Assembly: GCA_027579435.1 (NCBI GenBank)
Contig: JANBPK010001196.1
Coordinates: 1 to 64,000, forward strand
From: Candolleomyces eurysporus
Lineage: Eukaryota > Basidiomycota > Agaricomycetes > Agaricales > Psathyrellaceae
DNA: 64,000 bases
Reading direction: 5' to 3'
The notes under the pieces are model-generated. The model saw only the letters and a list, made by a program, of their open reading frames with translations. It was not told the DNA's origin and did no database searches. The translations under genes were made by a program, and so were the position numbers. This document shows, piece by piece, positions 23,807 to 47,313 of this stretch; within the stretch, counting starts at the first letter, position 1, and each line of letters opens with the position of its first letter.

Positions 23807-24103
23807 TCAAGTCTTCTGCCTTGTAGAATATTGAAAATACCAATTCGTTTGTTTTCCGTTATTCACCACCAAGTCCTCGAGAAATGCTTGAAGTGGCATC
23901 TGTGAGAGGATCTCGGGCAAACATAACCAACAAAGAGCGCAGTTAGATCTGAGCACGTTTGACCCTTGGGCAAGCGTACTCGTAATCGACTGCGGTGGGA
24001 ACTGAGTCAAGCAGACGGTGTACCCTGAGTCACCGCCTTGGTATCTTCCCTGCCCGTCTTCTTCGAAGAATCGAGTGTTCACGTCTATTAAAGCTTGGAC
24101 CAA
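23807..24103 (-). other. fragment repeated after FunK1-C and FunK1-D
   Basis: A minus-strand open stretch (with FLEDLVVNNGKQTNWYFQ) is clearly related to one after copy D (26731-27084, with FLENLVRRNQDQTKSYFQ). It may be the remnant 3' end of a convergent gene that was duplicated with the kinase. No domain is recognised. Confidence 0.45.
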
Positions 24104-24369
24104 TTTTTGAGGTTCTGTTTTCTAGTAGGTACTGTATAGAGCTCGGAAAACCTGCGAAATGATTCAACGGTAAGTTGACAAGTTCCTCACCGAGCTTCTT
24201 TTTGTTTGGGCCCGTCGCGACACGGTCACATGTCTAGATAACTGCTTCCGGATGGCCCCAACCCACTTTGTCTCTTGACCACAGCCATTGCACTCTCATA
24301 ATCCTCTGCCACACGACCAAACCCGTTGTCTGCGCAGCTTTTACCAACATTAGACCGTGTTCAATTATC

Positions 24370-29273: not shown

Positions 29274-29952
29274 ATGTCAAGTTTCAGCAAACAAACAGAC
29301 CCTCTCGCTGCCTTCTTCGCACAGTATCCAGCCTTCCCCTACAACAAATACCGTTCCCCGACAAACGAGTTTCATCGTCTATGCCGCCATCAACGCTGGA
29401 AACGTGAGGATCCAGTCCGAAAGGACGCATACAGATCGTTCGGAGACGCACTAGCGAAGCAGTTCAACGCCAATTTCGGACACGATGCCGGAAACTTGAG
29501 CTCATGGCAGACTCTATGCCGCACGTTGGGTATTCCTGCACCGAACGACCTTGTCGAAGCGAGAAAGGTGAGTGCTAAGCCTAATTGCAGTTGTTGTGAC
29601 TTTACTTCTATTCTGCAATGAGAGAGCGTATCACTTACCAAGACGCTGACATGGATATCGATTCTTGTAGGCTGTCTTTAATACTCACGTTAACCTCGTC
29701 GATCTGACACAGGGATACGGCCGTGCCGAGAAGATTAAGAAATTCCCGACAGAAGCTGCATTGAGCAACTATTCGCTCAATCAGTGCCGTCCTAAAAAGA
29801 TTTTCCCCCCATCCAAGGTTGCTGGAACATTATTACAGGCCTTACTTCGAAAGATCCTTCAACCTCCTGATGAGTCGTCGGTAAGGGATGCATTCAATAA
29901 AATTGTAAACGTTCATCCAGGCAAGGGAAGGAAGAAGAGGAGAAGGAGTTAG
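29274..29952 (+). CDS. HVNLVDL family copy 1 (small protein of unknown function)
   Basis: Two exons (29274-29567, 29671-29952), phase 0, 191 residues. Module 1 (exon 1): FFAQYPAFPYNKY..NEFHRLC..FNANFGHDAGNLSSWQTLC..GIPAPNDLVEARK. Module 2 (exon 2): AVFNTHVNLVDLTQGYG, FPTEAALSNYS, then AGTLLQALLRKI. The C-terminus is strongly basic (GKGRKKRRRS), which could be a nuclear or nucleic-acid-binding tail. No known domain is recognised; the split of the two modules by one phase-0 intron is the same in every copy of the array. The start was chosen at the ATG just before the conserved module; an earlier in-frame ATG exists at 29211 region. Confidence 0.8.
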
Positions 29953-30260
29953 AGGGCCTTCGACGTACATATATATATCGACTACAGTTTAGATTTTCTT
30001 GAAAGTTATCGCATCGCATCTGTACCCAATTTCGAATCGTTCAGTCATCGCTGCGAGGCCTTGCTTATCTGTACACACGAAAGAATGCGCCATCACGTCG
30101 TTGATAAGTCCGCAGCCTCTTTGACCGGGCTTCCCGCTAAAAAGCTGTCTAAATGCGATCAGGTGTCCACCACTTCTTCCGCTTCAGGAAGCTGCACAAA
30201 CAAGCGACCACTAGATAACACGGTATAAATACTAGGCATTCCGGCACAATGGACCCCCAC

Positions 30261-30280
30261 AAACGAAGACCGCGTTGGGA
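30261..30280 (+). promoter_or_regulatory. conserved upstream block I (copy 2)
   Basis: AAACGAAGACCGCGTTGGGA, about 117 bases before the copy 2 start, is shared with 34381-34400 (copy 4) and 36423-36442 (copy 5). In all three a TATAAATAC/ATAAATAC box precedes it by roughly 35-40 bases, so it probably lies around or just after the transcription start. Confidence 0.6.
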
Positions 30281-30396
30281 ACTCCTACATTGGCTTCCCT
30301 TCCTCGTCTTGGTATCTCCCAGCCCCCTTCTTGAATTGCGATCCCTACAGTGTCCTTCCTCCCTTGAGTTCAAAGATTTCATAACTTCTGCGAAGG

Positions 30397-31137
30397 ATGC
30401 CTAAAGGAAAGTCCAAGGTTAGCTTCTTCTCGCCAAAATTCGAAACTGAGCCAGAAGCTCACTGGCTGAAACCCGTAGACCACCCACTTGACCAAAAAGA
30501 AAAAGAAGGCCCGCGACTCGAGGCCTCTTGAAAGCTTCTTTGAGAAATACTCGCATACGTTCACTTACGACCCCACCGAGCCCGCAACATCAGAGTTTAA
30601 CCGTCTCTGTAGGGCAATGTCATGGCGCCGTGACAACCCTGAACAGGAAAAGGCTTATGAGAAATTCCGGGATGCCCTCGTTATAGAGTTCAACAAGAAC
30701 TACGGGACGGATGCGAACGATTTGAAGTCGTGGAAGACGTTGTGTGATGCAGTCGGGATCAATCCTATCCCGGACAACCTGGCAGAAGCGAGGAGGGTGA
30801 GTGCACTCGTACAATGGTATAAATGAATCAACTGTACTCATAGATTTACATTGCGTAGGCGATGCTGGGTGTCCACGTCAACTTGGTTGATCTGACGTGC
30901 AGGATTGGCCAATCTGAAATTCCCATTTTCGCGACTGAGAAGGAGCTCAGCGAGTACACACTCGACACGAACAAGATCTTCCCCAGGGAGAACATCCATT
31001 CTGGGAGTTTGCTGAAAGAGTTGCTTCGCCACATTTTCAACCCGAACGCCGCACGTGGACGCGGGAGTGGACGATATCGTCATTCTAGATCCAAGGCCAG
31101 TCGCAAGGCGCCTCCTGCGATGACGACGAGCGGATGA
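30397..31137 (+). CDS. HVNLVDL family copy 2
   Basis: Three exons (30397-30417, 30479-30796, 30859-31137), all phase 0, 205 residues. Exon 1 is only 21 nt (MPKGKSK). Module 1: RPLESFFEKYSHTFTYDPTEPATSEFNRLC..FNKNYGTDANDLKSWKTLC..INPIPDNLAEARR. Module 2: AMLGVHVNLVDLTCRIG, FATEKELSEYT, KIFPRENIHSGSLLKELLRHIF, then a basic Ser/Arg tail. It differs from type I copies by the short first exon and AMLGV at the module junction; copy 4 shares both. The function is unknown. Confidence 0.82.
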
Positions 31138-31344
31138 AAGAAAGCAACGATTTGGTCTTGTGTCTGCTGTTCGTGATTTTGTGGGTTTGGTTAGTCAGGT
31201 ATTTACTTGAAAGACAATGTGTATGTACATACCACGACGTGCCCGATTATTTGATTAGCCATTCGAATGCCACTCTTCTTCTTGGGCCCTACGCTGCGAT
31301 GTCACTCTTCTACGAAGTCAGGTAGCCAGGCCTTTGAATCAGCT

Positions 31345-31824
31345 CTACAGAACAAATTTACCACAAAACAAAGGGCAACGTGTACGTGGTGCAATAGACG
31401 ACGTCCGAAAGCCAAATCTACTTGCATCGCATCTCATCGTGCCACCAGATCTGAAGTCATAAAGAAATCGGCGAAAGTGAGTGGTCAAATCGTTGAATCT
31501 ATATAACCGAACCTGTGCACCGTTTCCCTCAAGCTGGCTTTGCCCTACAGGAAAGGGATGTGTTGGGTGCCGCGGCTCAGAAAGAGCTTGACGGAAAGGT
31601 TCGGAGTTGCTCAAGGTGTTTGCGCGCCCAGATCCGACGGCAAGGTCGTCAATTTGGCTTTGGAAGACTTTCGTATCCCTCAAGCTCTGGCATTTATAGC
31701 TCGCGTCAATTCCTTGTTCGAGTTGTTCAAGGAAAAGCTTGCTTTTTTGGAGCTCATCGCTTGAGCGACTGCTTGACCGTTCGGTCATTTCGTCAACCTT
31801 TTTCAACTCCAGTCCAGGATGCAT
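31345..31824 (-). CDS. weak candidate ORF, 159 codons
   Basis: Uninterrupted minus-strand frame whose first half reads like a charged helical protein (LKKVDEMTERSSSRSSDELQ, LFLEQLEQGIDASYKCQSL). No domain, no intron and no paralog in the window. It overlaps the orphan promoter block, so it may be a gene fragment or chance. Confidence 0.25.
   Translation of the reverse strand: MHPGLELKKVDEMTERSSSRSSDELQKSKLFLEQLEQGIDASYKCQSLRDTKVFQSQIDDLAVGSGRANTLSNSEPFRQALSEPRHPTHPFPVGQSQLEGNGAQVRLYRFNDLTTHFRRFLYDFRSGGTMRCDASRFGFRTSSIAPRTRCPLFCGKFVL
31361..31382 (+). promoter_or_regulatory. upstream block II, orphan copy
   Basis: CCACAAAACAAAGGGCAACGTG is the same block that precedes HVNLVDL copies 6-9, but no family member follows it. 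It suggests a lost or deleted gene. It contains an ACGTG core. Confidence 0.55.
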
Positions 31825-33561
31825 ATGTTCGTCGATAGATGATCATCGAGATTTGAATGAGTCTCAGTATCTCCTAAATACCAGAGTAGTATAGGGTACA
31901 GCGCACGTTCAAGAATAATCTCGCTTTGACTGCGGTGCAACGTTCAGTCTCAAATGAGTTCAGTCAAAGAGTCGGACTCTGAGAGTGTCAGAAAGGATGG
32001 CAGTACTGTCTGGGTCAAGCAACGACGAGCGTCGTATCATCAATATCGTCCACCGTCTTCAACGATGAGCACACTCTCAATTATTCGTCTCACTCTCGGA
32101 GACGCTCTCCTCATTATGCATACCGAATGTTGAATGATGGTGACGCTCCCGAGATAATGGTGAAAGAAGGATTGGTCACGGATCTATTCCGAAAGAAGCT
32201 TTCTCTGCACTCTCCAAAGCCATATGACGCTCTGGATATCCACGATTTCGGAAGTACCGATGGACGAAGCGGAAGGAAGGGACAAGATCAACGACACGTC
32301 TTCCCTCGATGTTCACAACCCTCCAAGTCACGCCGCCCCGTCGCCGCTCTCCCTGCAGATTGCTCGAACTGACGTCGAGCTCACCGAGCATGGTTGAGGA
32401 AGTTGGGGTGATCGGGATGGAGGCTGGGTGCTCCTTCCTCTTCCCCCTCGCTCTGCTTCAACTGCGGGTGACGCCACCTTCAGACTTTGTCTTCGCTCCG
32501 TCGCTTGTCCCGGCCATCTGCCAACGAGGAATGCGTATTCCTCAAAGACATGGTTCATGAGCGCAGTTGAAGAGGATTGAGCGAGCCCGAGAACGTTTTA
32601 TTTAATTCTGCGCTATGCCCCACTCTTCCTAGACTCGTCGAACTCCTCGACCCGAGTTCGCCCATAGAATTGTGGGTACTGGATACAACATCTGCGCTAT
32701 GCAACTCGATCCAAAGCTCAAGATAAGCTCATATGACGTGTCAGCTACCTAAAAATTATCAAATTGATTTCTTTCTCAATCGTAATGGGTTTGGGCAGTG
32801 CTAGTGTTAGACCGAATCCCGCGGTGCAGGGGTATTGACCCACTCGTGAAAAGAACGACGAAAATCCTGTCCTCGGCATGCTGGAGGTAAATAGAGCTAT
32901 AGTCCTCCTTCAATGAGATTGGTTGGGCAAATTGGTGGTCTCCTTGGAGTGATGAAGGAAAGCCTGTATCACAAGCCACTTCCTCGAAAGTGGAAGTTAC
33001 GTGATAGGCGCCCATTGTGGAATTTGGTGCCCAGCTTAGAGCCTTTGGGGCTTGTGTTTACGTGTGCTTCCGCAATGGCTTGAGTCAACATGTGAAGAGA
33101 AAGTGTAGAATCCGGTGGGGAAAACAGGAATGTGGGATTCCACCAGTCACTCCGCCTCGTGGTCTTCACTTGCTTGGGAGTATATCAGCCTCATGACCAG
33201 CTCTCACCCACATTGACCTGTGCACGTTGCTGGAATAGTCTATAAAGAAGGGGTTTGAACACGTAAGGCTTTTTCCGTTCTCCAAACAAGTACTCACACG
33301 AGGATGCCATGCTCGACGAGATCTTGAGATCGAGGCATAGACCTCGTCGAGAATCGCCACTCGACGTGCCTCCATCGTCCGGAATCTTTGAGGATTTGAG
33401 CAATGCTCGTCAATCAGCCTGTACTCCATCGATTGTTGAGGTCCTGCATTCGAGCAGGTACCTCAATTGATCCTGTCCAGATATCGCGGAACTCTCGAAT
33501 CGGGTCAAAGGCGAGCCTGATTGCGAGTGTACGAGATGCTGACTGACCGTTTCTTCAAGCC

Positions 33562-34160
33562 TTGTTTGAAAAGTGCCAGCTGACGGTATTCGTTCTGTGG
33601 TTTCTCTTCCACACATTCTCGCAGTTCATCCACAAGAGGAATGCCCATAGAAGGCCGAGTTCCAACAGGAATGAAACAGACTATCTCGCCGACTTCTTCG
33701 CCCGATACCCAACGTTCACCTATAACAACTATAATTCCGCGACATTCGAGTTCCATCGTCTATGCCTCCACCAAGGCTGGAAGCGTAGAAATCCAGCGAA
33801 AGAGGCGGCATACAAGGCTTTTGCACGTGCCCTCGCGATGAAGTTCAACGCCAAGTACGGACATGACGCAGGTGACTTAGGGTCGTGGCAGAACTTATGC
33901 CGCACGTTGGGTATTCCTGCCCCAGACAACATCACCGATGCGAAGAAGGTAACTGCTAGGTCTAGTTCCGATCGCTCCAGTCAAGTTCCCATTACCACGG
34001 GAACGCCGCCATTCTGCGATGTCAGTCTTCTGGCACTTACGAGAGACGCTGACCTGGATTCCTTTAGGCTGTCTTCAACGCACGTTAATCTTATCGACCT
34101 GACAGAACGAAAGCCTGGTAGTACCCAGGAACTGCATCTGTATCTTATTTGGAATCGTTC
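33562..34160 (+). pseudogene. HVNLVDL family copy 3, decayed
   Basis: Module 1 is complete and open up to the donor at 33949 (DYLADFFARYPTFTYNNY.., EFHRLC, FNAKYGHDAGDLGSWQNLC, GIPAPDNITDAKK). Module 2 begins at 34068 (GCT GTC TTC AAC) but lacks two bases relative to the family (AACACGCAC expected), so it hits TAA at 34086; the HVNLIDLTE words continue in another frame and are then truncated. There is no clear start codon at the usual place. The following sequence (TCGTTCAGTCATCGCTGCG) matches the 3' flank of copy 1, so copies 1 and 3 are duplicates. Confidence 0.8.
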
Positions 34161-34380
34161 AGTCATCGCTGCGGGGACTTGCTTATTTTGTACTAGCGAA
34201 AGATCACGCTATGTGACGTGGTTGATATGCCTCCCTGGGTCTGTAGTCGCATGACCAGACTGCGGGTTAGTCAAATTGAGTGTCCAAACTTTCTTCCGCA
34301 TCAGGAAGCTGTGCCAAAAGGCAGCGACACCACGAGGATGAAGGCATAAATACCAGCCTTCCCAGCTCAATGGTCCTCAG

Positions 34381-34400
34381 AAACGAAGACCGCGCTGGGA
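34381..34400 (+). promoter_or_regulatory. conserved upstream block I (copy 4)
   Basis: AAACGAAGACCGCGCTGGGA, 115 bases before the copy 4 start, with GGCATAAATACC about 40 bases upstream as TATA-like box. Confidence 0.6.
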
Positions 34401-34514
34401 ATTCCATAGTAGCTTCCCCTCATTGTCTTGGTATCTCCCTACAGCTTATTGAATTTTTATCCCTCCAACTTTCTTCCTCCTTCGAGTTCAAAGAGTCTAC
34501 ATCTGCGGTGAAGG

Positions 34515-35003
34515 ATGCCTGGAAAAAAGTCCAAGGTTAGTTGCTCCCCTGAGCTGCGATATTCACTAGAAAATTACTGACTACAATCAACTACTTCGCT
34601 CACCCACCCAGTCGTTCAAACACATAGGGGCAGTCAAAGACCTCGAATCTCTCGAGGACTTCTTTAAGCAAATGCCTAGAAGAAAGTCCAAGGTTAGTTG
34701 CTCCTCTGAGTCGCGAAAATCACTAGAACTTTACTGACTGAAACCAATTACTTCGCTCACCCACCTAGTCGTTCGAACAAAGCGCGATAGTCCAAGACCC
34801 TGTGCGTCTCGAGGACGTCTTCAAGCAAATACCTGGGAAAAAGTCCAAGGTTAGCTGCTCCTCTGAGTCGTGAAAATCACCAGAGAATAACTGACTGGAA
34901 CCAACCACCTCGCTCATACACCCAGTCGTCCGAACAAAGCGCGATTGTCCGAGACCTTGGGTCTTTCGAAGGCTTCTTCGAAATGGGTGGAAGGAAGTCC
35001 AAG
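34515..35003 (+). repeat. tandem exon-plus-intron repeat, period 154-157 bp
   Basis: The KSK-encoding segments end at 34535, 34692, 34849 and 35003. Each is followed by GTTAG(T/C) donor sequence, a CTGACT branch-like site and CACCCACC(C/T)AG-type acceptor, so the repeated unit is one 78-81 nt exon plus one ~76 nt intron. Confidence 0.92.
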
Positions 35004-35890
35004 GTTAGCTGCGCCTCTGAGTCGCAAAAATCACTCGAAAATCACTGACTGAAAACGACCACATCGCTCACCCACCCAGTCATTCAGACAGATAATGAGG
35101 GCCCCAAACCGTAGGCCTCTCGAAAAGTTCTTCAAGAAATACTCAAGAAGCTTCACATACGACTATACCGAGCCCGCAACATCGGAGTTTCAGAGGCTCT
35201 GCGAGGCCGTGCGATGGTATCCCAACAGTCCCAAGCAACAAGCAGCATATGAGGAATTCCGAGATGCGCTCGTCATGGAGTTCAACAAGAACTATGGGAC
35301 AAACGCCAATGACTTGAAGTCGTGGCAGAAGCTGTGCGCTGCGGTTAGGATGGATCCTATCCCCAACAACTTGGCTGAGGCAAAGAAGGTGAGCGCACGG
35401 ACAACACCGCTTTCATCCCACAAAAAGTACTCACTGCTTCATCATCTAGGCAATGCTGGGTGTCCACGTCAATCTGGTTGATCTGACGTGCGTGGCTAAC
35501 CCATCTGGGATACGCCTTTTCCCAACTGAGAAGGCGCTCACTGAGTATACGCTTAGAACGCAAAAGATCTTCCCTATGGGGAATGTCTACTGTGGTGCTT
35601 TGCTGAGAGAGCTGCTTCGCCACATTTTCTCTGAGCCGACTCGAGTTGAACGTAGGCGCGAGAGCGTAAGCTATCGTCGCTCTAGGCACACCTTGCAAGG
35701 TGTGCCTTGGGATGACGAGTCGGAGTATGGCGAGTCGGAGGATGACGAGTCGGAGTACGGCGAGTGGAAGTGGAAGTATGGTGAGCCGGAGTATGACGAC
35801 TTGGAGGATGACGAGGATTGCATGAAAGGAGACAACGATCCGTACCCTATGCCTGCGATGCACGATTTCGATTGGTTCGTTGATTACTGA
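34515..35890 (+). CDS. HVNLVDL family copy 4 with repeated N-terminal exons and acidic tail
   Basis: Six exons, all phase 0: 34515-34535, 34612-34692, 34769-34849, 34926-35003, 35080-35388, 35450-35890; 336 residues. Exon 1 encodes MPGKKSK. Exons 2-4 are near-copies of each other (27, 27 and 26 codons; pattern S-F/S-E-Q-S-A-I-V..L-E-D-F-F-K-Q..R/K-K-S-K), each ending in the KSK peptide of exon 1. Exon 5 is module 1 (RPLEKFFKKYSRSFTYDYTEPATSEF.., FNKNYGTNANDLKSWQKLC). Exon 6 is module 2 (AMLGVHVNLVDLTC, FPTEKALTEYT, KIFPMGNVYCGALLRELLRHIF) followed by an acidic repetitive tail (DDESEYGESEDDESEYGEW..) not found in the other copies. Function unknown. Confidence 0.82.
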
Positions 35891-36723
35891 GAGACAACGA
35901 GTATGTACATACCACAAGTGCTTGGCCTTTGATGAGTCCACTGTAATGATAGCTCTTTCACAATGACGGCAGTGGCCCAAACCCCCGCCGCCGCTCTTGC
36001 TTGGTGCTCTTGAAAGTCGAAGTGTCGTCAGGCTTTCGCCGTAGCTTCTTCAGTTTCTTCAAGGAGGGCACCATGTGCCCATCCGAACCCCGTCCGAGTG
36101 GCACGAGGCGAGTTTCTTCTTATACCACCGGGACAAGATATACCTTTGCTGGGGCTCCGTGGATTCGGATTGTGGCGACCCCAATTCTGGCTGGAATAGG
36201 CGCCTGCCACGTTTGGGGTTCGAACCTCGGTGCTTCCGTAACGGGAAAGGATATCAGTCAATCAACTTCGCGGTCTTCCTTTGAAAGGATGTCCATCAGT
36301 CTCATGACCAGGATACGGCCAGAAGGAATTTAGCTATTGTCAAAGGCTTCTGCGTCTCCAAACAAGTACTCACACAAAAATGCCATAAATACTCTACTTC
36401 CCATGTTCAACAGGTTCCCAAGAAACGCAGACCGCGCTGGGAAGCCCATCCTCAAGGAGTTCCCTACATCGTCTTCGTGGGTCCGAGCACACTGTCAGTG
36501 TCGGAGTCTAAGGAAGACGCACTCAATCCAGTATGCATTCTTTCTTGCAGGTTTCTGCTTTAGGACGTGGTTTCAATTCGTCGCCCTTTGCTCTGTCGAT
36601 TACAGCTGTTCTTAGTACGTTGAACAGGCCTGCATCGCGAATAGGTGAGTGTTCAAACCTTGTGGCTAGGAAAGAGTTGGCAACTAACCGTGCTGCCCTC
36701 CCGCACTCAAGACAAGGACCAAG
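35891..36723 (+). other. spacer between copies 4 and 5
   Basis: No gene. 36190-36385 resembles the long 5' flank of copies 1 and 3; a TATA-like GCCATAAATACTC at about 36383 and block I at 36423 precede copy 5. Confidence 0.5.
36423..36442 (+). promoter_or_regulatory. conserved upstream block I (copy 5)
   Basis: AAACGCAGACCGCGCTGGGA, one base different from the copy at 34381. It lies about 280 bases before the copy 5 start, farther than in copies 2 and 4. Confidence 0.55.
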
Positions 36724-37387
36724 ATGGCCCGCCCTGGTCCGCTCAGGTCGTTCTTCGAACGATATCCAAGCTTCGACTACGATGCTTTCGAGCCTTCCAC
36801 GTCGGAATTTCGCCGTTTATCCAAGCTCATGGGTTGGAGACGAGAAGACCCAGAGCAGAAAGCGGCATACGAAGCGTTCACCGACGCGCTCTCAAATCAA
36901 TTCAACTCCAACTACGGCTCTGACGCTGAGAACTTGGAGTCTTGGCAGAAGCTTTGCGACAATCTAGGCATCAGTCCCATTCCAGACGATCTAATCGAGG
37001 CAAGGAAGGTCAGGCTCTCTCTTCGCTTTGCCTTGTTCCGTCAACCTATCCCCTGCATTAGTTTTTTATTTATTGTGAAGCAAAGAGCCTCTCACTGACC
37101 TATGATCATCTGCTGTGACTTTACAGGCCGTCTTCAATACGCATGTCAATCTCGTCGATCTGACGGAAGGTTTTGACGGGGCGAAAGAGATAGATGTCTT
37201 CCCGACTGAAAAGGAGCTTAGCGATTACACCAAGGTGACAGGGAAGTACTTCAGCTCGTCGTCAGCCGCGGGGACATTGTTGAAGGCGTTACTCCGCAAT
37301 ATCCACCATCCGCCTTCCACGTCGTCCAGGCGAAACGAGTTTGGCAGGATTGTAGGGGGAAAGAGGAGGGGCAGAAGGCGAAATTAA
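36724..37387 (+). CDS. HVNLVDL family copy 5
   Basis: Two exons (36724-37008, 37127-37387), 181 residues. Module 1: GPLRSFFERYPSFDYDAFEPSTSEFRRLSKLMGW.., FNSNYGSDAENLESWQKLC, ISPIPDDLIEARK. Module 2: AVFNTHVNLVDLTEGFDG, FPTEKELSDYTKVTGKYF, AGTLLKALLRNI. The C-terminus is basic (GGKRRGRRRN), like copy 1. This is the cleanest representative of the family in the window. Confidence 0.85.
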
Positions 37388-37893
37388 TGGCGGCTGTCAT
37401 TAACAATGAGTGAGAGCTTCGATGTATCTATCTGCTACGATTGGTTTGTACTATAGTTCTTGTTCCACGAGACCGTGGGTTCACCTGAAAGATATTGCAC
37501 CTGTACCATGGTTAGACGGGTTTTCACTGAGAACGTTGCTCAAAAACGATCACAAAGCTCCCCGGGTCTGCAGGCTTATGGCCGAACTTCTGGATGCGGA
37601 GAGGTCCAAACGGGACTATTGCCAGTACTAAAACCTTCTTCCGTGTCAGCAAACATTCTAGGGACTAGGTGACCCGCGAGACGTACCTCGTAATCGCGAA
37701 GAGTGGATGAAACAACCAAAAGGTTGTTTGGGCGGGAATTCCTCTGACTTTGACGAGTTGAATGCAATATGCATGTACATACCACAAAGGGCATGGCGCC
37801 TTTCCGACCCCATTGTGGGAATACCTCTTTCACAATATGAGCAGGCCCATACCCGCCGTTACTCTGCCACAAAGCCAATTCGATAGAAGTTGG

Positions 37894-37916
37894 CCACAAA
37901 AACAAAGGGCGACGTG
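37894..37916 (+). promoter_or_regulatory. upstream block II (copy 6)
   Basis: CCACAAAAACAAAGGGCGACGTG, 50 bases before the decayed copy 6 start. Confidence 0.6.
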
Positions 37917-37965
37917 TATCGTGGTACTATGAGAGCCCTTACCTCGCTTCGTTAGCACCTGCAAC

Positions 37966-38529
37966 ATGTCTCGCCCGGTCCACTCTCGTCATTCTTCGAG
38001 CAATGCCCAGTGTTCGACTACCATGATTTCGGGCCGGCTACTTCTGAGTTCCGACGTTTGTCTCAGCAGAACGGTTGGGCGCGACAGCACCCAGCGCAGA
38101 ACGCGGCATACCGGTCGTTCACCGACGCGCTCGCCATGCAGTTTACGGTGAAGACGCGGGGAACTTGGAATCTTGGCAGAGCCTTTGCGAGAATCTGGGT
38201 ATCAAGCCCATTCTGGATGATCATGCCGAGGTGAGGAGGGTGTGTCAGATTGTTTTCGTTTCTCGTCAAGTGAAGGACAATTAAATCTCACTTCATACCT
38301 CCTGCTGCTGCCACTTCTGGGCAATGTCTTCGACCTGACGGGGCGAGGAAGATTGAGGTTCTCTCGAGTGAGGCGGCACTTAGCAAGTATACCAAGAAGA
38401 CGGGGAGGTACTTTAGCTCGTCGAGGGCTGCGGGTACCTTGTTGAAGGTTGTTGCGCAATATTGAAGATCCGCCTGAGACGTCGTCCAGGGGAATGAGTT
38501 TGATAGGATTGTAGGGCCGTGGAGAGGGA
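37966..38529 (+). pseudogene. HVNLVDL family copy 6, decayed
   Basis: The start ATGTCTCGCCC is present but one base is missing within the first codons, after which the family frame (FFEQCPVFDYHDFGPATSEF, RLSQQNGW, AYRSFTDALAMQF) continues in another frame. A deletion removes the NYG..D segment near 38150, and module 2 (RKIEVLSSEAALSKYTKKTGRYFSS) has lost its HVNLVDL start and ends in shifted frame. It is the close duplicate of copy 8. Confidence 0.8.
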
Positions 38530-38739
38530 GACACACCAGGCGCCGGCACTGGCAACATGGATCTGTAACGGGGTTCGATCAGTTTGACGAGATTGTGTCA
38601 TTGGGTGTACGTACCTTCTATAAGTAACTTGCTCGTCGCCTATGTCTTCTCCATTGAATCCACTTCATAGTCACGACGCACATACACACGCATACAATCA
38701 TAGGAAGACAGTCCTTGGAATTCTATAGAACAAAGTGAG

Positions 38740-38759
38740 CCACAACAAAGGGCAACGTG
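38740..38759 (+). promoter_or_regulatory. upstream block II (copy 7)
   Basis: CCACAACAAAGGGCAACGTG, followed 12 bases later by ATTATAAGAACC as TATA-like box. Confidence 0.65.
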
Positions 38760-38914
38760 GACGATGAATTATAAGAACCCCGCCTCGCCTCGATCGTACC
38801 TGCGGTCTTCCTCTCGGCGTTCATCTGCACTCGCTGTCACCGAAGCTCATCCCAGAGCCAAAGAAAATCCACTCCTAGCCCATACCGCCCGCGTGAATCA
38901 TACCCAAAAACGCG

Positions 38915-39496
38915 ATGCCCGGTCCTTTACAAACTTTCTTCGACGGCTTCCAACCCCAGTTCCAGTACAACCCCCTCCAACCCGCGACCTCAGAGTTCCG
39001 ACGCCTCGCCCAAGCGCAGGGGTGGCACACGGACGACCAAGAGTGCCGCCAAGCGCGGGGGCAGTTCAAAGACGCACTGGTCGATCAGTTCAACTCCAAT
39101 TACGGGATGGACGAGAACAGTTTGACGGGGTGGCAAGCGCTGTGCGAGGCCCTGGGGATCGAGCCTATCCCGGACTCGGTGAGGGAGGCGAAGAAGGTGC
39201 GTTTGAGCAAGGTCTTCAGGCGGCGTGTGTGTCTGGTCTGACGCGTTAATGGCGAACTCAACCTCAACCCACATACGCACTGGGTTACTGGTGGTGCCGT
39301 ATGTTAGATCGTGAAGAATACGCACGTGAACCTCGTCGACCTCACAGAGGGTCGAAGGAACGGGCAGAGCGTCAGGACCTTCAATACCGTGGCGCAGCTG
39401 AGAAAGTATACGAAGAAGTCAAACAAGGTGTTCCCGAAGAGGAACGCGAAAGCAGGAGGGTTGCTGAAGCATTTGCTTAGGCCGATCTTCTCATAG
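38915..39496 (+). CDS. HVNLVDL family copy 7
   Basis: Two exons (38915-39196, 39308-39496), 156 residues. Module 1: GPLQTFFDGFQPQFQYNPLQ.., ATSEFRRLAQAQGW, FNSNYGMDENSLTGWQALC, GIEPIPDSVREAKK. Module 2: IVKNTHVNLVDLTEG, FNTVAQLRKYTKKSNKVF, AGGLLKHLLRPIFS. It has no basic or acidic tail. The start chosen is ATGCCCGG next to the conserved module; an upstream in-frame ATG at 38764 in another frame set is less likely. It is duplicated as copy 9. Confidence 0.84.
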
Positions 39497-39721
39497 TTTC
39501 CGGTTGATGTCTTGTCTGAGGCTGGAGTGCTTGGTAGCCTGAAAAATTCGTCGACGTGCAGACGCAATTCGATTGAGATAAATGTACAATGATGATACAG
39601 AATGCAGGTCGCACTTGAATTGTAAAGCAGAGTTAAGCAGAGTGTTAGAGCAGGTAAACTTTTGCCGGAGCCAAACAAGGACAAATCGTAGGTCCTGGTA
39701 ATCAATATAATCGATACGGAT

Positions 39722-39940
39722 TCATATCAAACGCTGTATAGACTCAGGGAGCACTATTGTACATGAATATCGGGTGAAATGATATCCACAATACCGGAGT
39801 TGCGTGGCGCGACGCGACCGACGCGTCGGTCGCGTCGTGCCTGCCCTTGCACTTCCCCTCATGCCCGAAAATCCTAGAGACGGTGATCCTAGAAACTCAG
39901 CGAGCCTGGAGATCGGACGTATGATCTTATCTCCATAATC
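39722..39940 (+). repeat. spacer repeat R, copy 1
   Basis: From AGACTCAGGGAGCACTATTG through GAAATGATATCCA, GGAGTTGCGTG to CCTAGAAACTCAGCGAGC and ATTGGACGTATGAT-like words, this matches 44940-45140 in the same orientation. The pair flanks the two lectin genes. No gene; the remaining spacer to 40239 holds the FunK1-like scrap at 40044. Confidence 0.8.
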
Positions 39941-40043
39941 CCGCCCTTCTCCGATTTCAGGTTCGGTGTTTTCTGCTTCCAGCTCCCCAGAAAGCCGGGA
40001 AGTCAGCGCTCCGGTCATCTAGTTGCCTGCATAACAGTAGAAG

Positions 40044-40090
40044 ATGCCTCGGGACTTGCCATGCGGAGCATCGGCCGCTTCACATAGGTT
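40044..40090. repeat. FunK1-like scrap
   Basis: ATGCCTCGGGACTTGCC..AGCATCGGCCGCTTC..AGGTT matches 14774-14819 (the border of the insertion and the adjacent FunK1-A coding sequence) with about five differences over 46 bases. Confidence 0.6.
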
Positions 40091-40239
40091 GGAGTAAAGT
40101 TAGCAGATGTTTTATTCCCTACCGTCGCCCGTGTTCCCTCGTTGGGACCCGGAGCTTTGCGTGTTTTGAATGCCGGTGCCAACTTGATCGCAAGTATCTA
40201 TCCCTAGCCATCGATATCAACCACCCGCCCTTCAGATAT

Positions 40240-42044
40240 ATGGATCCTCAAGACACTGCTGATAAATGGGTATGTCGTCTCATCTATGAAGCCAACTGAC
40301 GCAACGGGACTCAAAAATGCGTAGGTTCAGGTCTATGGTGGTGATCTGGTCCCCGTAATCCTCCAGCTCTTCAAGGACCCCACGTTAGGACTGATTGAAG
40401 GAGGGAAAGATGGAGATGACTCACGCCCGTTGTACGTTGCCCGAGCCGTATCCTCGGTAGGTTGCGCTCACTTAAGTCACCGACAAGCGTCTGATGTTAG
40501 CTATAATCACACTTGGCAGGACGGCTGCTGTAGGTTTCTCCATTGTTTCGACTGAGCCCACTATCAATCCTCACCTAAATACTCAGACCCTGGAGAATGC
40601 GGATTTCATATCCCAGGAGCTCAAATACCTCGCGATGGGGCCGTCCGTATTGTAAGGACATCATGCTTACAGTTTCTCTGGCGGTTTCTCATTGCTTGAG
40701 TGCCAGGAACCCATGTTTGAGGTCCTACTTGGAAATCGTGCGGATTACGAGTGGCGATCGGTAGAAGGGCCGTTTGATATTTCGAAGATCAATAAGATGC
40801 AGCCCGTGCTGTGAGTTTTCTTCTTATTTTTACCTGATACACATCCTGAGCTGTATCGTCCAGGGGCGGTCATCACTACCATGACGGAGCCATAAAAACC
40901 TTATATATCGCAAGGGCGACGACAGAAGACGGAGGAATCCACTTTGGAAATGTTTTAGCTGAGACCTGCGGTGCGGGGACATATCTTTCTGTTCTCACTT
41001 TAACCTTGAGTACTGACAAAATGATTGTAGCATCTATTTGCTATCAAGAGCTCGTCCAGGAGACCGAAAGGTTTGAAGTTCTAGTTCACGCTAATTCCAA
41101 CGTTGTGAGTTCCTCTTGATCTCTCTCTTCTTCCCACTGCGCACTTCTAACGATGAAGCCAGCGCGGAGTGAAGGTCCTGACAGGAAGGTACCCTGTCAA
41201 TAGCGATTGCGGGTGGACAGGGAAAACTAAACGTTACTCAATTGCCGTCAAGTTTGCACAACCCCTCGTCAACGTACCCCGCGTTGCAGTGGGTCTCAAC
41301 AAGATTTACATAGGGCTAACGGATACGAGGTCTGTCCGCGTTGAATCGTTCGCCTCCAGCATCACAAGGGGCGGATTTACATGCAATGCAGTATCCTGGA
41401 AAGATGGGATACTGCACTGCGCGACCGTTGACTGGATAGCCATAGTAGACGAACCTACCTGGCAAAAGGGCCTTTTCAAGTCATCGAACTTCATGATCAA
41501 GAAGTGGGGTTTGGAGGAACGGGTCCAATTTGACGAGCCATTTGCAGACGGCCCTCCGATCCTTTTTGCATGTCTGAGCAGCATCGAGATGGTAGGAAAA
41601 TGGAGCGTCCGGATATACACCACCGACATAGATCACACAGGGTTCACTGTTGGTATTGTGAACAGTGGGGAGGAAGGCGGGTCATCGGAAAACCTGGTCT
41701 CTGCCTCTGTCACTTGGATTGCCATTCCAGTGAGCGAATTCATGAAGAAAAAGAATGCTTGGATTGGGGCGTTCACCACCGATATCGGGAAGGCTTTTGA
41801 TTTGGACAAATGTGGTCCTGGTGGATGGCGAGGCCATGTCGAGTTTGGGTTCGAGTTCCGCAGGAGGCCGAAAATCTTCGTTGGATTTCGTCAATTTTGC
41901 GTTAATAATGACGTAAACCTTCGCCTGGAGACAAGCACTTCAAACGTGACTACCTCTGGGATGGATTGGGAGCTCGGGAAGTGGGGCGACACTAATTTAC
42001 TCAGTGCCGGAGTGAACTTCCTGGCGATCGATGCAGACACATGA
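40240..42044 (+). CDS. DM9 (DUF3421) plus H-type lectin fusion protein, copy A
   Basis: Eight exons (40240-40269, 40325-40456, 40520-40529, 40587-40651, 40707-40810, 40864-40970, 41031-41104, 41163-42044), 467 residues. Residues about 11-170 resemble DM9/DUF3421 repeats (VYGGDLVPV, PLYVARAVSS, FEVLLGNRADYEWRSVEG, VLGGHHYHDG, TLYIARATTEDGG, CYQ..FEVLVHA), a mannose-binding fold known from animals. The C-terminal exon holds three H-type lectin-like repeats (VKFAQPLVNVPRVAVGL..VDWIAI; VQFDEPFADGPPILFACL..VTWIAI; VEFGFEFRRRPKIFVGF..VNFLAI). No signal peptide is seen, so a cytosolic or non-classically released sugar-binding protein is likely. Exon 3 is only 10 nt. Ligand and role unknown; defence or self/non-self recognition is a guess. 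Confidence 0.85.
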
Positions 42045-42682
42045 AGGACATCGAGATTCAAGGGNTTTTTTGATAGCTCTCTTATCGGACTAAACGAGCC
42101 AGTGTCCTAGTACGTTGGATGGGGTACCTAGAAGTAGCAGTAGGAGCCCTTACCGTATCGCTATCGTGATTTTGTCCCCGACCTCAACAAAGGTGCCATT
42201 TCGAGGCAATCCTTAATAATTACCTCTACTACTACTACTACCTTGGGGAAGCTGTTGTTTGCTACACTGATGTCAGTAATAGCCCAACAGCCTTGGAAAC
42301 TTACACAGCGGGTTAGCAACTGATCGCTACCCTAAACCTCGCCGTCTCGAGTGCGAACGAACAGACCTAGAAATTCAGGCTCCTCGCCTAGTATGCTATT
42401 GAAGCTGATTTCTCCTAAGTCCGATCCATCGAATATCCAATCCCTCACTTTCCATGCTCCCGCAGACGAACCCAATCACATCACATTTGACGATAAGTGT
42501 GACGACGATATTCATTATGCGCGGTCACCACGCGGACTCGGAGCTTTACAGTCATATGGTGTTTTGAACAGCTGCTGCCAGCTTATTTGGGTTACTGAGT
42601 TTGCCAGGCTGCATCCTTTCATGAACGTGGCTCTTCTGTAAAGTATCTATCCCCCCCATCGATATCGACCACCGTGCCGTCC
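42045..42682. other. spacer between the lectin genes
   Basis: No gene supported. It begins with 3' sequence also seen after copy B (ACTAAACGARCCAGTGTC, GTACGTTGGAT), includes an N at 42065, a short CTA microsatellite near 42228 and a 96-codon frame at 42351 without a domain. Confidence 0.4.
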
Positions 42683-44482
42683 ATGGATTCTCAAGACACG
42701 CCCGGTAAATGGGTACGCGCTCTCTATGAAGCCAGCCGCCGATAAACGACTCAGAAATGCCCAGATTCAGGTCTACGGTGGAGATCTGGTCCCAGTAATC
42801 CTCCAGCTCTTTCAGTCACCCATGCTCGGACCGATTGAAGGAGGGAAAGATGGGGAAGACTCAGGCCCGTTGTACGTTGCAAGATCTGTATCCTCGGTAG
42901 GTTACGCTCACTTGAGCTACCGACAATACGCCTAATGCTAACTATGATCACGCTCGACAGAATGGCTGTTGTACGTTTCTCGATTGAACCTGCTATCGTT
43001 CCCTCAACCAATTCTGCAGACCCTGGGGAATGCGGATCTCACATCTCCGGAGCTCGGGTACCTCGCGATGGGGCCAGCTGTTTCGTAAGGACACACTAAT
43101 TTCTCTGGTAGCTTCTCACTTATCGCTTGAGCGACAGGAACCCAAGTTTGAGATACTAATTGGAAATCCCGCGGACTACGAGTGGCGACCGGTAGTAGGG
43201 CCGTTCAATATCTCAAAGATCGACAACATGCAGCCCGTGCTGTGAGTTTCGAATCTTTCTCCTGTTTTTATCAAATATTCATCTGGAGCTACGACGTCCA
43301 GAGGTGGTCATGACTGCCATGACGGGATCGTGAAAAAATTATACATCGCAAGGGCGGCGACAGAAGACGGAGGAATTCACTTTGGAAATGTTTCAAACGA
43401 TAGCTGCGGTACGGGAGCACATTTTCCATTGTTTGGGCTTGAACACTAAAACATGAATCGTAGCATCTATCTGTTATCAACGGCGTGTCTGGGAGACCAA
43501 AGAGTTTGAGGTCCTAGTCCACGCCGATTCTAACGTGGTGAGCTTCCTTCATGATCGTTCTCTTTCTCCCTCCGTGGAATCCTAACGATGAATCCAGCAC
43601 GGCGCGAAAGTCCTTTCAGGAAGCTACACGGTAGTCAACGATTGGAGGCATACCAAGCAAGCTGCACGTTACTCCACTGCCGTCAAATTCGCGCAACCCC
43701 TCGTCAACGTACCCCGTGTTGCAGTAGGTCTCAGGATGCTTGACATAGGGTTGGCGGATGCCAGTAGTTGTATTCGCGTTGAATCGTTCGCCTCCAGCGT
43801 CACAAGCCATGGATTTACGTGCAACGCAGTATCCTGGGCCGATGGAATACTGCACTACGCAGCTGTTGACTGGATGACCATAGTAGACGAACCTACCTGG
43901 CAAATGGGCCTTTTCAACTTCAAGGCATCGTGCTTCAAGAAGTGGGGCTCGGAGGAACGGGTCACATTTGACAAGCCCTTCTCAGATGGCCCTCCGATCC
44001 TTTTCGCATGTCTGAGCGGCATCGAGGCCGCAGGAAATCGGAGCGTCCGAATTTATACCACCAACGTAGACCATAGCGGGTTCACTGTTGGCATTGTGAA
44101 CAGCAGTGAGGAAGGCGGGTCGTCAGGGAACCTCATAGCTGCGACTGTGACTTGGATTGCTATTCGAGGCAGCGAATTCATGAAGAAGAAGACTGTGTGG
44201 ATGGGGACATTCACCACGGATATGGGGAGCAGTTTCAATTTGGACAAACATGGTCCTGGCGGATGGCGAGGCCATGTCGAGTTCGGGCTCGAGTTCCGCA
44301 GGACGCCGAAGATTTTCGTTGGACTTCGTCAATTTTGCTGTACCGATGACGGAAACCTTTGCCTCGTGGCAAGCACGTCGAGCGTGACTACTTCTGGGAT
44401 GGATTGGGGACTGGAGAAGTGGTCGTACACCAAGCTACTCAGTGCTGGGGTGAATTACCTTGCAATTGATGCAGATCCATGA
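42683..44482 (+). CDS. DM9 (DUF3421) plus H-type lectin fusion protein, copy B
   Basis: Eight exons (42683-42712, 42765-42896, 42961-42970, 43020-43084, 43138-43241, 43302-43408, 43464-43537, 43598-44482), 468 residues; the first seven exons have exactly the same lengths as in copy A, including the 10-nt exon 3. DM9-like part: VYGGDLVPV, PLYVARSVSS, NGCYPGECG, FEILIGNPADYEWRPVVG, LYIARAATEDGG, FEVLVHAD. H-type lectin repeats: VKFAQPLVNVPRVAVGL, VTFDKPFSDGPPILFACL, VEFGLEFRRTPKIFVGL. It is a recent tandem duplicate, same strand, about 0.64 kb after copy A. No signal peptide. Confidence 0.85.
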
Positions 44483-45777
44483 GGAGCATCGAGATTCGAG
44501 GGTCTTAGCTGTCTCGTGGGACTAAACGAACCAGTGTCGTAGTACGTTGGATTAAGGTACTTAAGAGTAGCAATAGCAGCCTTTACTATGTCGCCAGCGC
44601 AATTTCGTCGCCAATTCCAACAAACTTGCTATCTCGAACTTCGAAGCGACCTTTGATGTATTAAATGAATTACCCTGGGGAAACTGATATTTGCTTCATA
44701 GCCCCTCTAATCGATACCCTCTAGGTCGCACCGCAGCACCAAGCCCTTGAACGAATGGAAGAATTTATCATAATTCCGGACGCGGTGTGGATGATGTGCT
44801 TGACCCCAGTGCGACCGAATCAAGTGTCGCTTTCTGATTACTGCGAAGCGAGCAATCTGTATAAGAGGTGCGCAAATCGTAATACCCCTAGGTCCTGGTA
44901 ACATATCGGCGCCATTGCTCAACGTAATCGATACAGATTCATGTAAAACGCGGTAGATAGACTCAGGGAGCACTATTGTACATAGATGTTGGGCGAAATG
45001 ATATCCATAATAGAGGAGTTGCGTGACAAGATCGTGCCTGCCTTTGCACTTCTCCCCGTGGCACCATACCCCAAAATCCCAGAGGCGGTGGTCCTAGAAA
45101 CTCAGCGAGCAGCCGACCTGCTCTTGGCGATTGGACGTATGATGCCAGTGCGGATTTCTTGATCTCAACCGCTGAACTTGGAGTCAATGGCTCTGTATGA
45201 GGCTCCCTGCGAGTGGAAAATGTTCTCTTTGCGATTCTATGATGCTAAGAGACACACTCGGTAGTGATATAATTCAGAGATCGTGCTGTACACGCTGTCG
45301 GGCTCGCGAGAAATGCTCTGTCTGCTTTAAAATCAAGAAAATCATCCATTTCCAGAAGACAGACCGTGCTCCAGCTCGAGAGAACATGAATGCGAGCCTA
45401 TTTAAGTCATGAAAGCAGTAGAGATTGCGATATGGCGAAAACAGTTGCAAGAAAGCAAAGAGCAGCTGACAGAGGTATGTGCATGCTCTAATGGCGCGTA
45501 AATCTCACCGATTACAATGAAGCCCAAGGGGCTTCTTTCGTCTTCCCGTCACCTCGAAGCCACTTCTGCGTGAAATATTCGAAGTCAGAACTGTGTGGAA
45601 GAACTAGGATCGAGGCCGACGCAGCGGCCCAAATATCTTGTAGACGCGACCAGCAAATTGCGGGCTAGGTGACCCGCGAGACGTACCTCGTAATGGCGAA
45701 GAGTGGAAGAAACAGCTGATAGGTTGATGGGCGGGGATGTCTTTGATGAGTTGAATCTACCTCTGTCACAAAGTTGG
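44483..45777. other. spacer after the lectin genes
   Basis: No supported gene. It holds spacer repeat R copy 2 (44940-45140), a 71-codon Cys-rich frame at 45197-45412 (CSLCDSM.., CCTRCRAREKCSVC) that might be a zinc-binding fragment, and from 45655 the duplicated 5' flank of copies 6 and 8 (GGTGACCCGCGAGACGTACC, also at 37670). Confidence 0.4.
44940..45140 (+). repeat. spacer repeat R, copy 2
   Basis: Matches 39722-39940 in the same orientation. Copy 1 has an extra GACGCGTCGGTCGCGTCG-like insertion. Confidence 0.8.
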
Positions 45778-45800
45778 CCACAAGAACAAAGGGCGACGTG
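45778..45800 (+). promoter_or_regulatory. upstream block II (copy 8)
   Basis: CCACAAGAACAAAGGGCGACGTG, followed by GGCACTATAAGAGCCC as TATA-like box. Confidence 0.6.
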
Positions 45801-45869
45801 TGTCGTGGCACTATAAGAGCCCTTACCTCGCACATCGCAACAGCCCTCGCCCTTGTGCAAAAGCCTTGC

Positions 45870-46430
45870 AACATTTCGACTACAATGATTTCGAACCTGC
45901 CACCCTCTGAGGAGTTCCGACGTTTGTCTCAGCAGAACGGCCGGACGCGACAGCACCCAGCGCAGAACGCGGCATACTGGTCATTCACCGACGCGCTCGT
46001 AATGCAGCTTACGGCGAAGACGCGGAGAACCTAGAGTCTTTGGCAGAGCCTTTGCGAGAATCTGGGTATTAAGCCCGTTCTGGATGATCTTGCTGAGGCG
46101 AGGAGGGTATGTCAGATTTTCGTTTCTCGTCAAGTGCAGGACGATTAAATCTCACTTCATACCTCCTGCTGCTGCAATTTACAGGATTCAACACCCACGT
46201 GAATCTCGTCGACTTGACGGAAGGCTTTGACGGGGCGCGGAAGATTGAGGTTTGCTCGAGTGAGGCGGCGCTTAGCGAGTATACCACGAAGACGGGGAGG
46301 TACTTTAGCTGCGGGTACCTTGTTGAAGGCGTTGTTGCGCAATATTGACGATCCGCCTGAGACGCCGTCCAGGCGAAATGAGTTTGGTCGGATTGTAGGC
46401 CCGTGGAGAGGGAGGCGCCGGCAACATTGA
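45870..46430 (+). pseudogene. HVNLVDL family copy 8, decayed
   Basis: Relative to copy 6, the start codon and about 45 following bases are deleted (GCAACAT joins TTCGAC near 45872). Two extra bases near 45905, a deletion before GAAGACGCG and later shifts break module 1. Module 2 is better kept (FNTHVNLVDLTEGFDG, RKIEV, SSEAALSEYTTKTGRYF) up to a shift near 46312. Promoter block and flanks are shared with copy 6. Confidence 0.8.
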
Positions 46431-46608
46431 TCTGTAATGTTATTCGATCAGTTTAGGGAGATTGTCATTGTGTGTACACACCTTCCATCATTAGTCTTTC
46501 CTTGTCAACTATGTCTTCTCCATTGAAAGCAATTCATAGTCACGACGCGCACACACACGGACACAATGATAGGAAGACATCCCTTTGAATTCTATAGAAC
46601 AAAGTGAG

Positions 46609-46628
46609 CCACAACAAAGGGCAACGTG
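46609..46628 (+). promoter_or_regulatory. upstream block II (copy 9)
   Basis: CCACAACAAAGGGCAACGTG, identical to the block before copy 7, followed by GTATAAGAACC. Confidence 0.65.
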
Positions 46629-46770
46629 GACGATGGAGTATAAGAACCTCGCCTCGCCTCGGTCGTGCCCGCGGTCTTCTTCTCAGTGGTCATCTGCACC
46701 CGCTGTCACCGAAGCTCATCGCAGAGCAAGACAATCCCATATCGCCCGCGTCGTTCATACCGAAAACGCG

Positions 46771-47313
46771 ATGCCAGGCCCTCTGCAAGTCTTCTTCGAC
46801 GGCTTCCAGCCCCAATTCCTGTACGACCCGCTCGAGTCGGCTACATCAGAGTTCCAACGCCTGCTCCAAGTGAAGGGGTGGCATTCAAACGACCACCGGT
46901 ACCGCGCGGCCAACAGAAAGTTCAAAAACGCGCTGATCGCCCAGTTCAACTTTAACTACGGGATGGATGAGAATAGTTTGACGGGTTGGCAGGCGCTTTG
47001 CGAGGCTCTGGGGAAGCCTGTGCCGACCACGGTGGCTCAGGGCAAGAAGGTGCGTTTCTCGAGACCATCTGTGTTGGTCTGACGTTGACGCCAACCTGGG
47101 TTATGTTATTGGTGCGGTATGTAGATCGTCAAGGGCACTCACGTGAACCTTGTAGACCTCACAGAGGGTCGTAAGCACGGGCGGAAGATTAAAACTTTCA
47201 AGACCATAGCGAAGCTGAAGAAGTATACGTGGGAGACAAAGAAGATATTCCCAAAGGACGATGCGAAAGCGGGAGGGTTGCTGAAGTATTTGCTTAGGCC
47301 GATCTTGACATAG
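46771..47313 (+). CDS. HVNLVDL family copy 9
   Basis: Two exons (46771-47049, 47125-47313), 155 residues. Module 1: GPLQVFFDGFQPQFLYDPLE.., ATSEFQRLLQVKGW, FNFNYGMDENSLTGWQALC, GKPVPTTVAQGKK. Module 2: IVKGTHVNLVDLTEGRK, FKTIAKLKKYTWETKKIF, AGGLLKYLLRPILT. It is the duplicate of copy 7, with shared 5' and 3' flanks. The frame is open upstream to 46585, but the ATG at 46771 sits at the family's start. Confidence 0.84.

What the first reader, a model, noticed from the sequence alone, without database searches (positions are those of the whole stretch)
29274..47313. Nine-member local array of an uncharacterised two-module protein family
Seen: nine related loci (starts near 29274, 30397, 33562, 34515, 36724, 37966, 38915, 45870, 46771), all on the plus strand, each with module 1 (..ATSEF.RL..GW, FN.NYG.D..DL.SWQ.LC, GI.PIPD..EARK) and module 2 (HVNLVDLT, ..ELS.YT..T.K.F, LLK.LLR.I) split by one phase-0 intron. 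Six look intact, three are decayed. Tails vary between strongly basic, acidic and absent. I know no named domain for it. Rapid local copy gain and loss with variable tails is the pattern of genes under recurrent conflict or recognition roles, but that is inference.
Basis: partly seen in the sequence, partly recalled or inferred. Interest (0 to 1): 0.85.

Follow-up and report, generated by a model that had tools for sequence, protein, structure and literature searches.

The report
Mushroom array of unnamed helical-domain genes
A mushroom genome carries nine neighbouring copies, six intact and three decayed, of a gene family found in both large fungal phyla for which we found no name and no known function; some of its relatives carry an RNA-binding-type zinc finger that these copies lack.

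Summary
Nine homologous loci, all on the + strand, fill 29.3-47.3 kb: six intact, three decayed, and no other found in the window. The genome is Candolleomyces eurysporus: two GenBank proteins match copies 4 and 9 letter for letter.

The family is not local. Profile searches returned 118 and 460 homologues; the named ones listed are Dikarya fungi. No Pfam or NCBIfam model reached its cut-off on the domain, and no PDB match was convincing. The 'two modules' are predicted as one compact helical domain (pLDDT 94.6), split by an apparently ancestral phase-0 intron.

38 of 201 held homologues have a CCCH finger; none of 20 Psathyrellaceae proteins or six window copies does. Most tails are basic. 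Best guess: an RNA-associated adaptor family that lost its finger here and multiplied by birth and death.

Silent divergence is large, dN/dS about 0.3, and congeners hold orthologues, which argues against rapid positive selection. An exception is copies 7/9, whose silent sites diverge three times more than their flanks. Function is unproven.

The parts
29274..29952 (+). copy 1 (type A), 191 aa: exon 29274-29567, intron 103 nt, exon 29671-29952; basic tail
   Evidence: spliced model; tblastn; groups with C-half of C. efflorescens P0010
30397..31137 (+). copy 2 (type B), 205 aa: putative small exon 30397-30417, intron 61 nt, exon 30479-30796, intron 62 nt, exon 30859-31137; basic tail
   Evidence: the 5' exon is inferred from homology with copy 4 and splice signals
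33685..34188 (+). copy 3 (type A), decayed: exon 1 open and 61% identical to copy 1; the second exon keeps an HVNLIDL motif but not the rest
34515..35079 (+). copy 4 five-prime part: exon 0 (34515-34535) and three candidate 26-27-codon phase-0 exons (34612-34692, 34769-34849, 34926-35003), with four 76-nt introns having GTTAG(T/C), CTGAC and (C/T)AG; a 157-bp tandem repeat
   Evidence: coding status not proven
35080..35890 (+). copy 4 (type B) domain: exon 35080-35388, intron 61 nt, exon 35450-35890; acidic tail; 336 aa if all mini-exons are used, 244 aa in GenBank
   Evidence: (P0015 identical)
36724..37387 (+). copy 5 (type A), 181 aa: exon 36724-37008, intron 118 nt, exon 37127-37387; basic tail
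   Evidence: P0001 of C. aberdarensis 91% identical, its neighbour in the tree
37983..38490 (+). copy 6 (type A), decayed: frameshifts, start of second exon damaged
   Evidence: the C. aberdarensis relative (N-half of P0011) reads through both exons
38915..39496 (+). copy 7 (type C), 156 aa: exon 38915-39196, intron 111 nt, exon 39308-39496; no tail
45875..46424 (+). copy 8 (type A), decayed: frameshifts and stops; duplicate of copy 6
46771..47313 (+). copy 9 (type C), 155 aa: exon 46771-47049, intron 75 nt, exon 47125-47313; no tail; duplicate of copy 7
   Evidence: (P0017 identical)

Best explanation
SHOWN (calls): the array belongs to an unnamed Dikarya family built on one conserved ~150-residue domain, predicted to be compact and helical. 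Some members carry an N-terminal single C-x8-C-x5-C-x3-H finger, and most long tails are basic. INFERRED: the ancestor was a small RNA-associated adaptor. The finger or basic tail docks on RNA, and the helical domain, with its near-invariant R31, W74, C78, H101, N103, D106, Y129 and R152 (P0001 numbering), binds a protein or small-ligand partner. In mushrooms, and in the Psathyrellaceae above all, the finger was lost and the bare domain multiplied in tandem by birth and death, with tails diverging from basic to acidic to none. The window shows one such array: three older subtypes (A, B, C), segmental duplications, six working-looking genes and three pseudogenes. Sequence identity, family membership and birth-and-death history are near certain (about 0.95). 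The RNA-adaptor function is a guess at about 0.35.
For: Nine loci. Homologues: 118 and 460 at E<=0.01. Two AF2 models, from different query proteins but overlapping alignments, give the same order of eight helices: pLDDT 94.6/pTM 0.87 and 86.5/0.75 for an Aspergillus member. CCCH finger in 38 of 201 held proteins, 22 of 36 named Ascomycota, 0 of 20 Psathyrellaceae, 0 in the reversed-sequence control (lineages assigned by me from the species names). Pfam zf-CCCH (PF00642) above cut-off in P0018, P0019, P0039, P0045, P0051 and P0077, and PF18044 in P0060, of ten scanned. The profile with the finger hits tristetraprolin (E 0.0006) and butyrate response factor 2 (E 0.0024) in the PDB. One member carries the RNase H1 N-terminal domain (P0026). 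C-tails net +3 or more in 99 of 120. Inserts that look like retained introns at the junction of the halves in 19 of 171 proteins, Ascomycota and Basidiomycota. Old subtypes with orthologues. dN/dS 0.31-0.32.
Against: No binding, localisation or expression datum was available. The core's own net charge is not basic (median -0.5, range -15 to +13, 162 proteins), so the domain itself need not touch nucleic acid. 163 of 201 held proteins, and all six window copies, show no finger; copies 7 and 9 lack a tail and copy 4's is acidic, so an inherited RNA role may not apply to them. The near-invariant polar residues could equally mark an active site.
Confidence: 0.4

Rival explanations
1. Recognition or conflict genes: the array diversifies under recurrent selection (allorecognition, anti-mycovirus or anti-transposon defence), with gene conversion reshuffling copies.
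For: Clustered copies and pseudogenes here; at least two members on a contig of the same length in 13 of 20 multi-member genomes, with 0 of 36 ascomycete genomes having more than one listed member. c7/c9: four-fold sites 19/51 and intron sites 22/75 differ, against 106/918 in flanks plus c6/c8 (Fisher p 4.6e-6 and 8.7e-5; 114/959, p 6.6e-6 and 1.1e-4 with all flanks). Other clustered families nearby: three FunK1 kinase ORFs and two H-type lectin genes.
Against: dN/dS 0.31-0.32, upper bounds 0.48-0.49; orthologues in congeners; no NLR or HET domain on the six copies in Pfam; the core is strongly conserved across Dikarya. The excess is in silent sites too, which points to mosaic history and not to amino-acid selection as such. 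dS for the other pairs is 2.1-3.6 or not computable, and site-wise positive selection was not tested.
Confidence: 0.2
2. A small enzyme or ligand-binding domain: near-invariant R31, H101, N103, D106, Y129 and R152 form a pocket, and the finger and tails only localise it.
For: H101 90/91, N103 91/91, D106 88/91, Y129 88/90, R152 88/88, R31 79/82; 21-22 residues between C78 and H101 in 148 of 171 proteins.
Against: No convincing PDB match; the only enzyme-like Pfam hit of any note on a window copy is a sub-threshold match of copy 9 to the end of Sulfotransfer_4 (E 0.0011, 19.3 bits, cut-off 22.8, profile positions 161-203 of 215).
Confidence: 0.2
3. Neutral multigene family: copies arise and decay by unequal crossing over, with no special role for copy number.
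For: Three of nine decayed, segmental duplication that takes in non-coding flanks, neighbouring H-lectin pair duplicated too, mini-exons of copy 4 diverge as fast as or faster than their introns.
Against: Purifying selection on the two measurable pairs of intact copies and long-retained subtypes suggest that at least some copies are useful.
Confidence: 0.2

Closest known systems
Unnamed Dikarya 'C3H1-type domain-containing protein' / 'hypothetical protein' family (e.g. Neonectria AK830_g8804, Fusarium redolens BKA55DRAFT_586389, Laccaria LACBIDRAFT_313400, Coprinopsis cinerea CC1G_03981)
   Same: same whole domain and same invariant residues; apparently the same intron between the halves in other members
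   Different: window copies lack the N-terminal CCCH finger that some relatives have, and form a nine-member array
TTP/TIS11-type CCCH proteins (tristetraprolin, butyrate response factor 2)
   Same: the finger of family members resembles theirs
   Different: the match covers the finger alone; the window copies have no finger
FunK1 (Pkinase_fungal) kinases and H-type lectins
   Same: neighbouring families that are also locally clustered
   Different: unrelated proteins; context only

Membership tests
Unnamed Dikarya HVNLVDL-domain family | HVNLVDL motif with F60, G65, W74, P87 and R152 in register | tested here: met
   six intact copies aligned with five homologues, these columns invariant; conservation counts on 91 of the 118 hits
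Unnamed Dikarya HVNLVDL-domain family | phase-0 intron between the two halves | tested here: met
   all six intact models; read-through inserts at the same place in 19 of 171 relatives
Unnamed Dikarya HVNLVDL-domain family | one compact helical domain | tested here: inconclusive
   predictions only, of P0001 (orthologue of copy 5) and Aspergillus P0064; no window copy itself was folded
CCCH zinc-finger proteins | C-x(5-9)-C-x(4-6)-C-x3-H motif | tested here: not met
   pattern absent in all six intact copies and in 20 of 20 Psathyrellaceae homologues; no zf-CCCH in Pfam scans
NLR / heterokaryon-incompatibility (conflict) genes | NACHT, NB-ARC, HET or HeLo-type domain on the protein | tested here: not met
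   no such Pfam match on copies 1, 5, 7 or 2, 4, 9
NLR / heterokaryon-incompatibility (conflict) genes | positive selection between paralogues | tested here: inconclusive
   whole-gene dN/dS 0.31-0.32 for the two unsaturated pairs; site models not run; c7/c9 mosaic
Transposon-borne gene | flanks repeated across the genome | tested here: inconclusive
   two flanks of copy 7 tested: the 237-bp one occurs at the two array places plus a 34-bp match elsewhere, the 144-bp one at the two array places only; other flanks not tested
Sulfotransfer_4 (Pfam) | score above the family cut-off | tested here: not met
   copy 9: 19.3 bits against 22.8, profile positions 161-203 of 215 only; P0039: 12.1 bits
Any fold in the PDB | structural match to a solved fold | tested here: inconclusive

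The most novel reading that the evidence does not exclude
A fungus-specific helical domain of undescribed fold, originally coupled to an RNA-binding CCCH finger, was freed from it in agarics and turned into a locally diversifying array. Gene conversion homogenises flanks while old, divergent coding alleles are kept (copies 7/9), and one copy grows a tandem array of symmetric mini-exons (copy 4). Together they would act as a variable recognition layer on RNA or on foreign nucleic acid.
Probability: 0.12. Interest if true: 0.8.

Novelty: new variant of a known kind. Interest (0 to 1): 0.42.

Why it matters
Hundreds of fungal proteins across two phyla share this domain, yet no Pfam or NCBIfam model reached its cut-off on it and no solved relative of the core was found. 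A high-confidence predicted fold without a convincing PDB match, a likely RNA link through the CCCH finger, and a contrast between ascomycetes (never more than one listed member per genome; 22 of 36 proteins with finger) and basidiomycetes (20 of 75 genomes with several; 9 of 104 named proteins with finger) make it a defined target. The array gives natural variants (tails, decay, mosaic pair) for testing what the domain does.

Tried and rejected
Pfam on the six intact copies: sub-threshold hits only, all rejected: FAD_SOX on copy 5 (E 0.12), HemY_N on copy 4 (E 0.22), Sulfotransfer_4 (E 0.0011, 19.3 bits, cut-off 22.8) and Fip1 (E 0.12) on copy 9. The Sulfotransfer_4 match covers 43 of 215 profile positions near its end; P0039 shows a trace of it too (E 0.17). 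I read it as a shared short helical motif, but this was not tested. NCBIfam on six family proteins: none. PDB sequence profile of the 91-member alignment: only E 0.33-0.47. Foldseek against viral structures: best E 1.4. The PDB fold searches gave nothing convincing, which does not show a new fold. No relative confirmed in viral contigs (4 pattern matches, 0 confirmed) or prokaryote genomes (7 matches, 0 confirmed); each scan used one short motif, so distant relatives could be missed.

NACHT fusion (P0006) rejected as a likely chimera: the joining stretch looks like read-through intron, though its NPHP3_N match is above cut-off. The WD40 fusion (P0031, one metagenome contig) and the RNase H1 N-terminal fusion (P0026) are single cases among the proteins scanned.

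Mini-exons of copy 4: I first thought them clearly coding. Against it: exon identity 69-76% is below intron identity 78-84%, differences are even over codon positions, and three open units have P 0.36 under neutral substitution.

Papers: the peptide motif HVNLVDL, four further peptide strings, six locus tags and PTHR38846 (a recalled lead) found 0 papers. Three keyword searches listed 1, 10 and 7 papers, none concerned with the family by title or abstract start. I saw search listings only and opened no paper.

In one search, 15 of 35 inner branches are well supported, the deeper order is open, and the C. aberdarensis copy-7 row is 49% filled. Ends of the alignment fade into noise. One search left out 41 aligned sites just upstream of copy 7 (8 differ); one search adds them. 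The family tables are capped: one search scored 7994 candidates, one search lists 120 of 460.
Full report
WHAT IS THERE. Forty-four family proteins, the window's own six intact copies among them, searched against the window give twelve plus-strand intervals that fall in nine loci, and nothing else. The reversed window gives no hit. Copies 1, 5, 7 and 9 are clean two-exon genes with a phase-0 GT-AG intron. Copies 2 and 4 share a likely small first exon (MPKGKSK / MPGKKSK) and a further intron. Copies 3, 6 and 8 are broken. GenBank proteins H1R20_g12026 and H1R20_g12029 of Candolleomyces eurysporus equal the copy 4 domain model and copy 9 letter for letter, which names the genome. At least four further copies lie on other contigs.

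COPY 4. Each unit contains a 76-nt stretch with GTTAG(T/C), CTGAC at the same place and a CAG or TAG end. These would be phase-0 introns around candidate exons of 81, 81 and 78 nt, which share the domain's own LEDFF-like start. Skipping or including such exons would keep frame. The case for coding is weak, however: the candidate exons are less alike (69-76%) than the introns (78-84%), the differences are even over codon positions, and three open units have probability 0.36 under neutral substitution. The GenBank protein begins after them.

FAMILY. Copy 5 alone finds 8 relatives. An 11-member profile finds 118, with only the 7994 best candidates scored, and a 15-member profile built from the distant ones finds 460, of which 120 are listed. 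The named ones listed are Basidiomycota and Ascomycota. Of 140 named proteins in 111 genomes (two strains or assemblies of a species counted apart), 20 genomes have two or more listed members. None of these is among the 36 ascomycete genomes, and 13 of the 20 have at least two members on a contig of the same length. No Pfam or NCBIfam model reached its cut-off on the core; the nearest was Sulfotransfer_4 on copy 9, below cut-off and over 43 profile positions.

ARCHITECTURE. A CCCH finger precedes the domain in 38 of 201 held proteins: 22 of 36 named Ascomycota, 0 of 20 Psathyrellaceae, 0 of six window copies, 0 in the reversed control (by a pattern in the first 150 residues, lineages assigned by me from the names). 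Pfam confirms zf-CCCH-type fingers in seven of the ten proteins scanned (six by PF00642, P0060 by PF18044), and the profile that includes the finger hits tristetraprolin and butyrate response factor 2 in the PDB. Presence in both phyla suggests that the finger is ancestral and was lost in this lineage (inference). Of 162 proteins that could be measured (39 of 201 could not), 120 have a C-tail of 10 or more residues; 99 of these are net +3 or more and 3 are net -3 or less, so copy 4's acidic tail is unusual. The core itself is not basic.

INTRON. In 171 proteins with both motifs, 148 have 21-22 residues between C78 and H101. Twenty-two have more than 28. Three of those are an artefact of the pattern catching an earlier tryptophan, and 19 hold an insert at the exon junction, 18 starting with V (GT donor) and 17 ending in Q (CAG acceptor). 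They include Peltigera (Ascomycota), Amanita, Lactarius and Candolleomyces (counted by eye). I read these as retained introns, which would make the junction older than the split of the phyla.

HISTORY. In the tree, type B (copies 2 and 4), type C (7 and 9) and type A (1, 5 and the C. aberdarensis relative of 6) are separate supported clades, each with members from congeneric species; the deeper order is unresolved. Pairs 2-4 and 7-9 have dN/dS 0.32 and 0.31 with dS 0.91 and 0.65; the other pairs have dS 2.1-3.6 or not computable. The segment with copies 6-7 is duplicated as 8-9. Within it, pseudogenes and flanks differ at 106 of 918 sites, but copies 7 and 9 differ at 19 of 51 four-fold sites and 22 of 75 intron sites (Fisher p 4.6e-6 and 8.7e-5). 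Adding the 41 sites next to the start codon, which that count left out, gives 114 of 959 (p 6.6e-6 and 1.1e-4). Sites are treated as independent. Selection on protein sequence alone would not be expected to raise silent and intron divergence like this. Conversion of the flanks, or a divergent donor for one coding block, could. The two flanks tested are not dispersed repeats.

MECHANISM. I favour an RNA-associated adaptor that lost its finger here. The support is architectural and indirect. The conflict, enzyme and neutral readings are listed as rivals. No expression, localisation or binding evidence could be obtained, and my paper searches (listings only) showed nothing on the family.

Noticed in passing
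34515-35139: 157-bp tandem repeat, four units, made of candidate phase-0 exons alternating with 76-nt introns; an exon-intron minisatellite.
   Followed up: partly
38915-39496 and 46771-47313: Coding exons and intron of copies 7/9 are far more diverged than the flanking segment and the neighbouring pseudogenes 6/8 of the same duplication.
   Followed up: partly
46771-47313 (copy 9): Sub-threshold Pfam match to the end of Sulfotransfer_4 (E 0.0011, 19.3 bits, cut-off 22.8); a weaker trace in P0039.
   Followed up: no
41157-42041 and 43592-44479: Two H-type lectin genes (three PF09458 stretches each), tandem duplicates 2.4 kb apart, lying between copies 7 and 8.
   Followed up: partly
18297-25671: Three ORFs matching the fungal FunK1 kinase family (PF17667), another local cluster upstream of the array.
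   Followed up: no
48460-49377: Squalene/phytoene synthase domain ORF just downstream of the array.
   Followed up: no
P0026 (Galerina marginata): Family member with an RNase H1 N-terminal (Cauli_VI) domain and repeated short RLEQI/RFEQI-AAL stretches; UniProt calls it Ribonuclease H.
   Followed up: no
P0009, P0119, P0120, P0121: Predicted proteins with two or three domain copies in one chain in Amanita, Rickenella, Pleurotus and Hypsizygus; some may be fused gene predictions.
   Followed up: no
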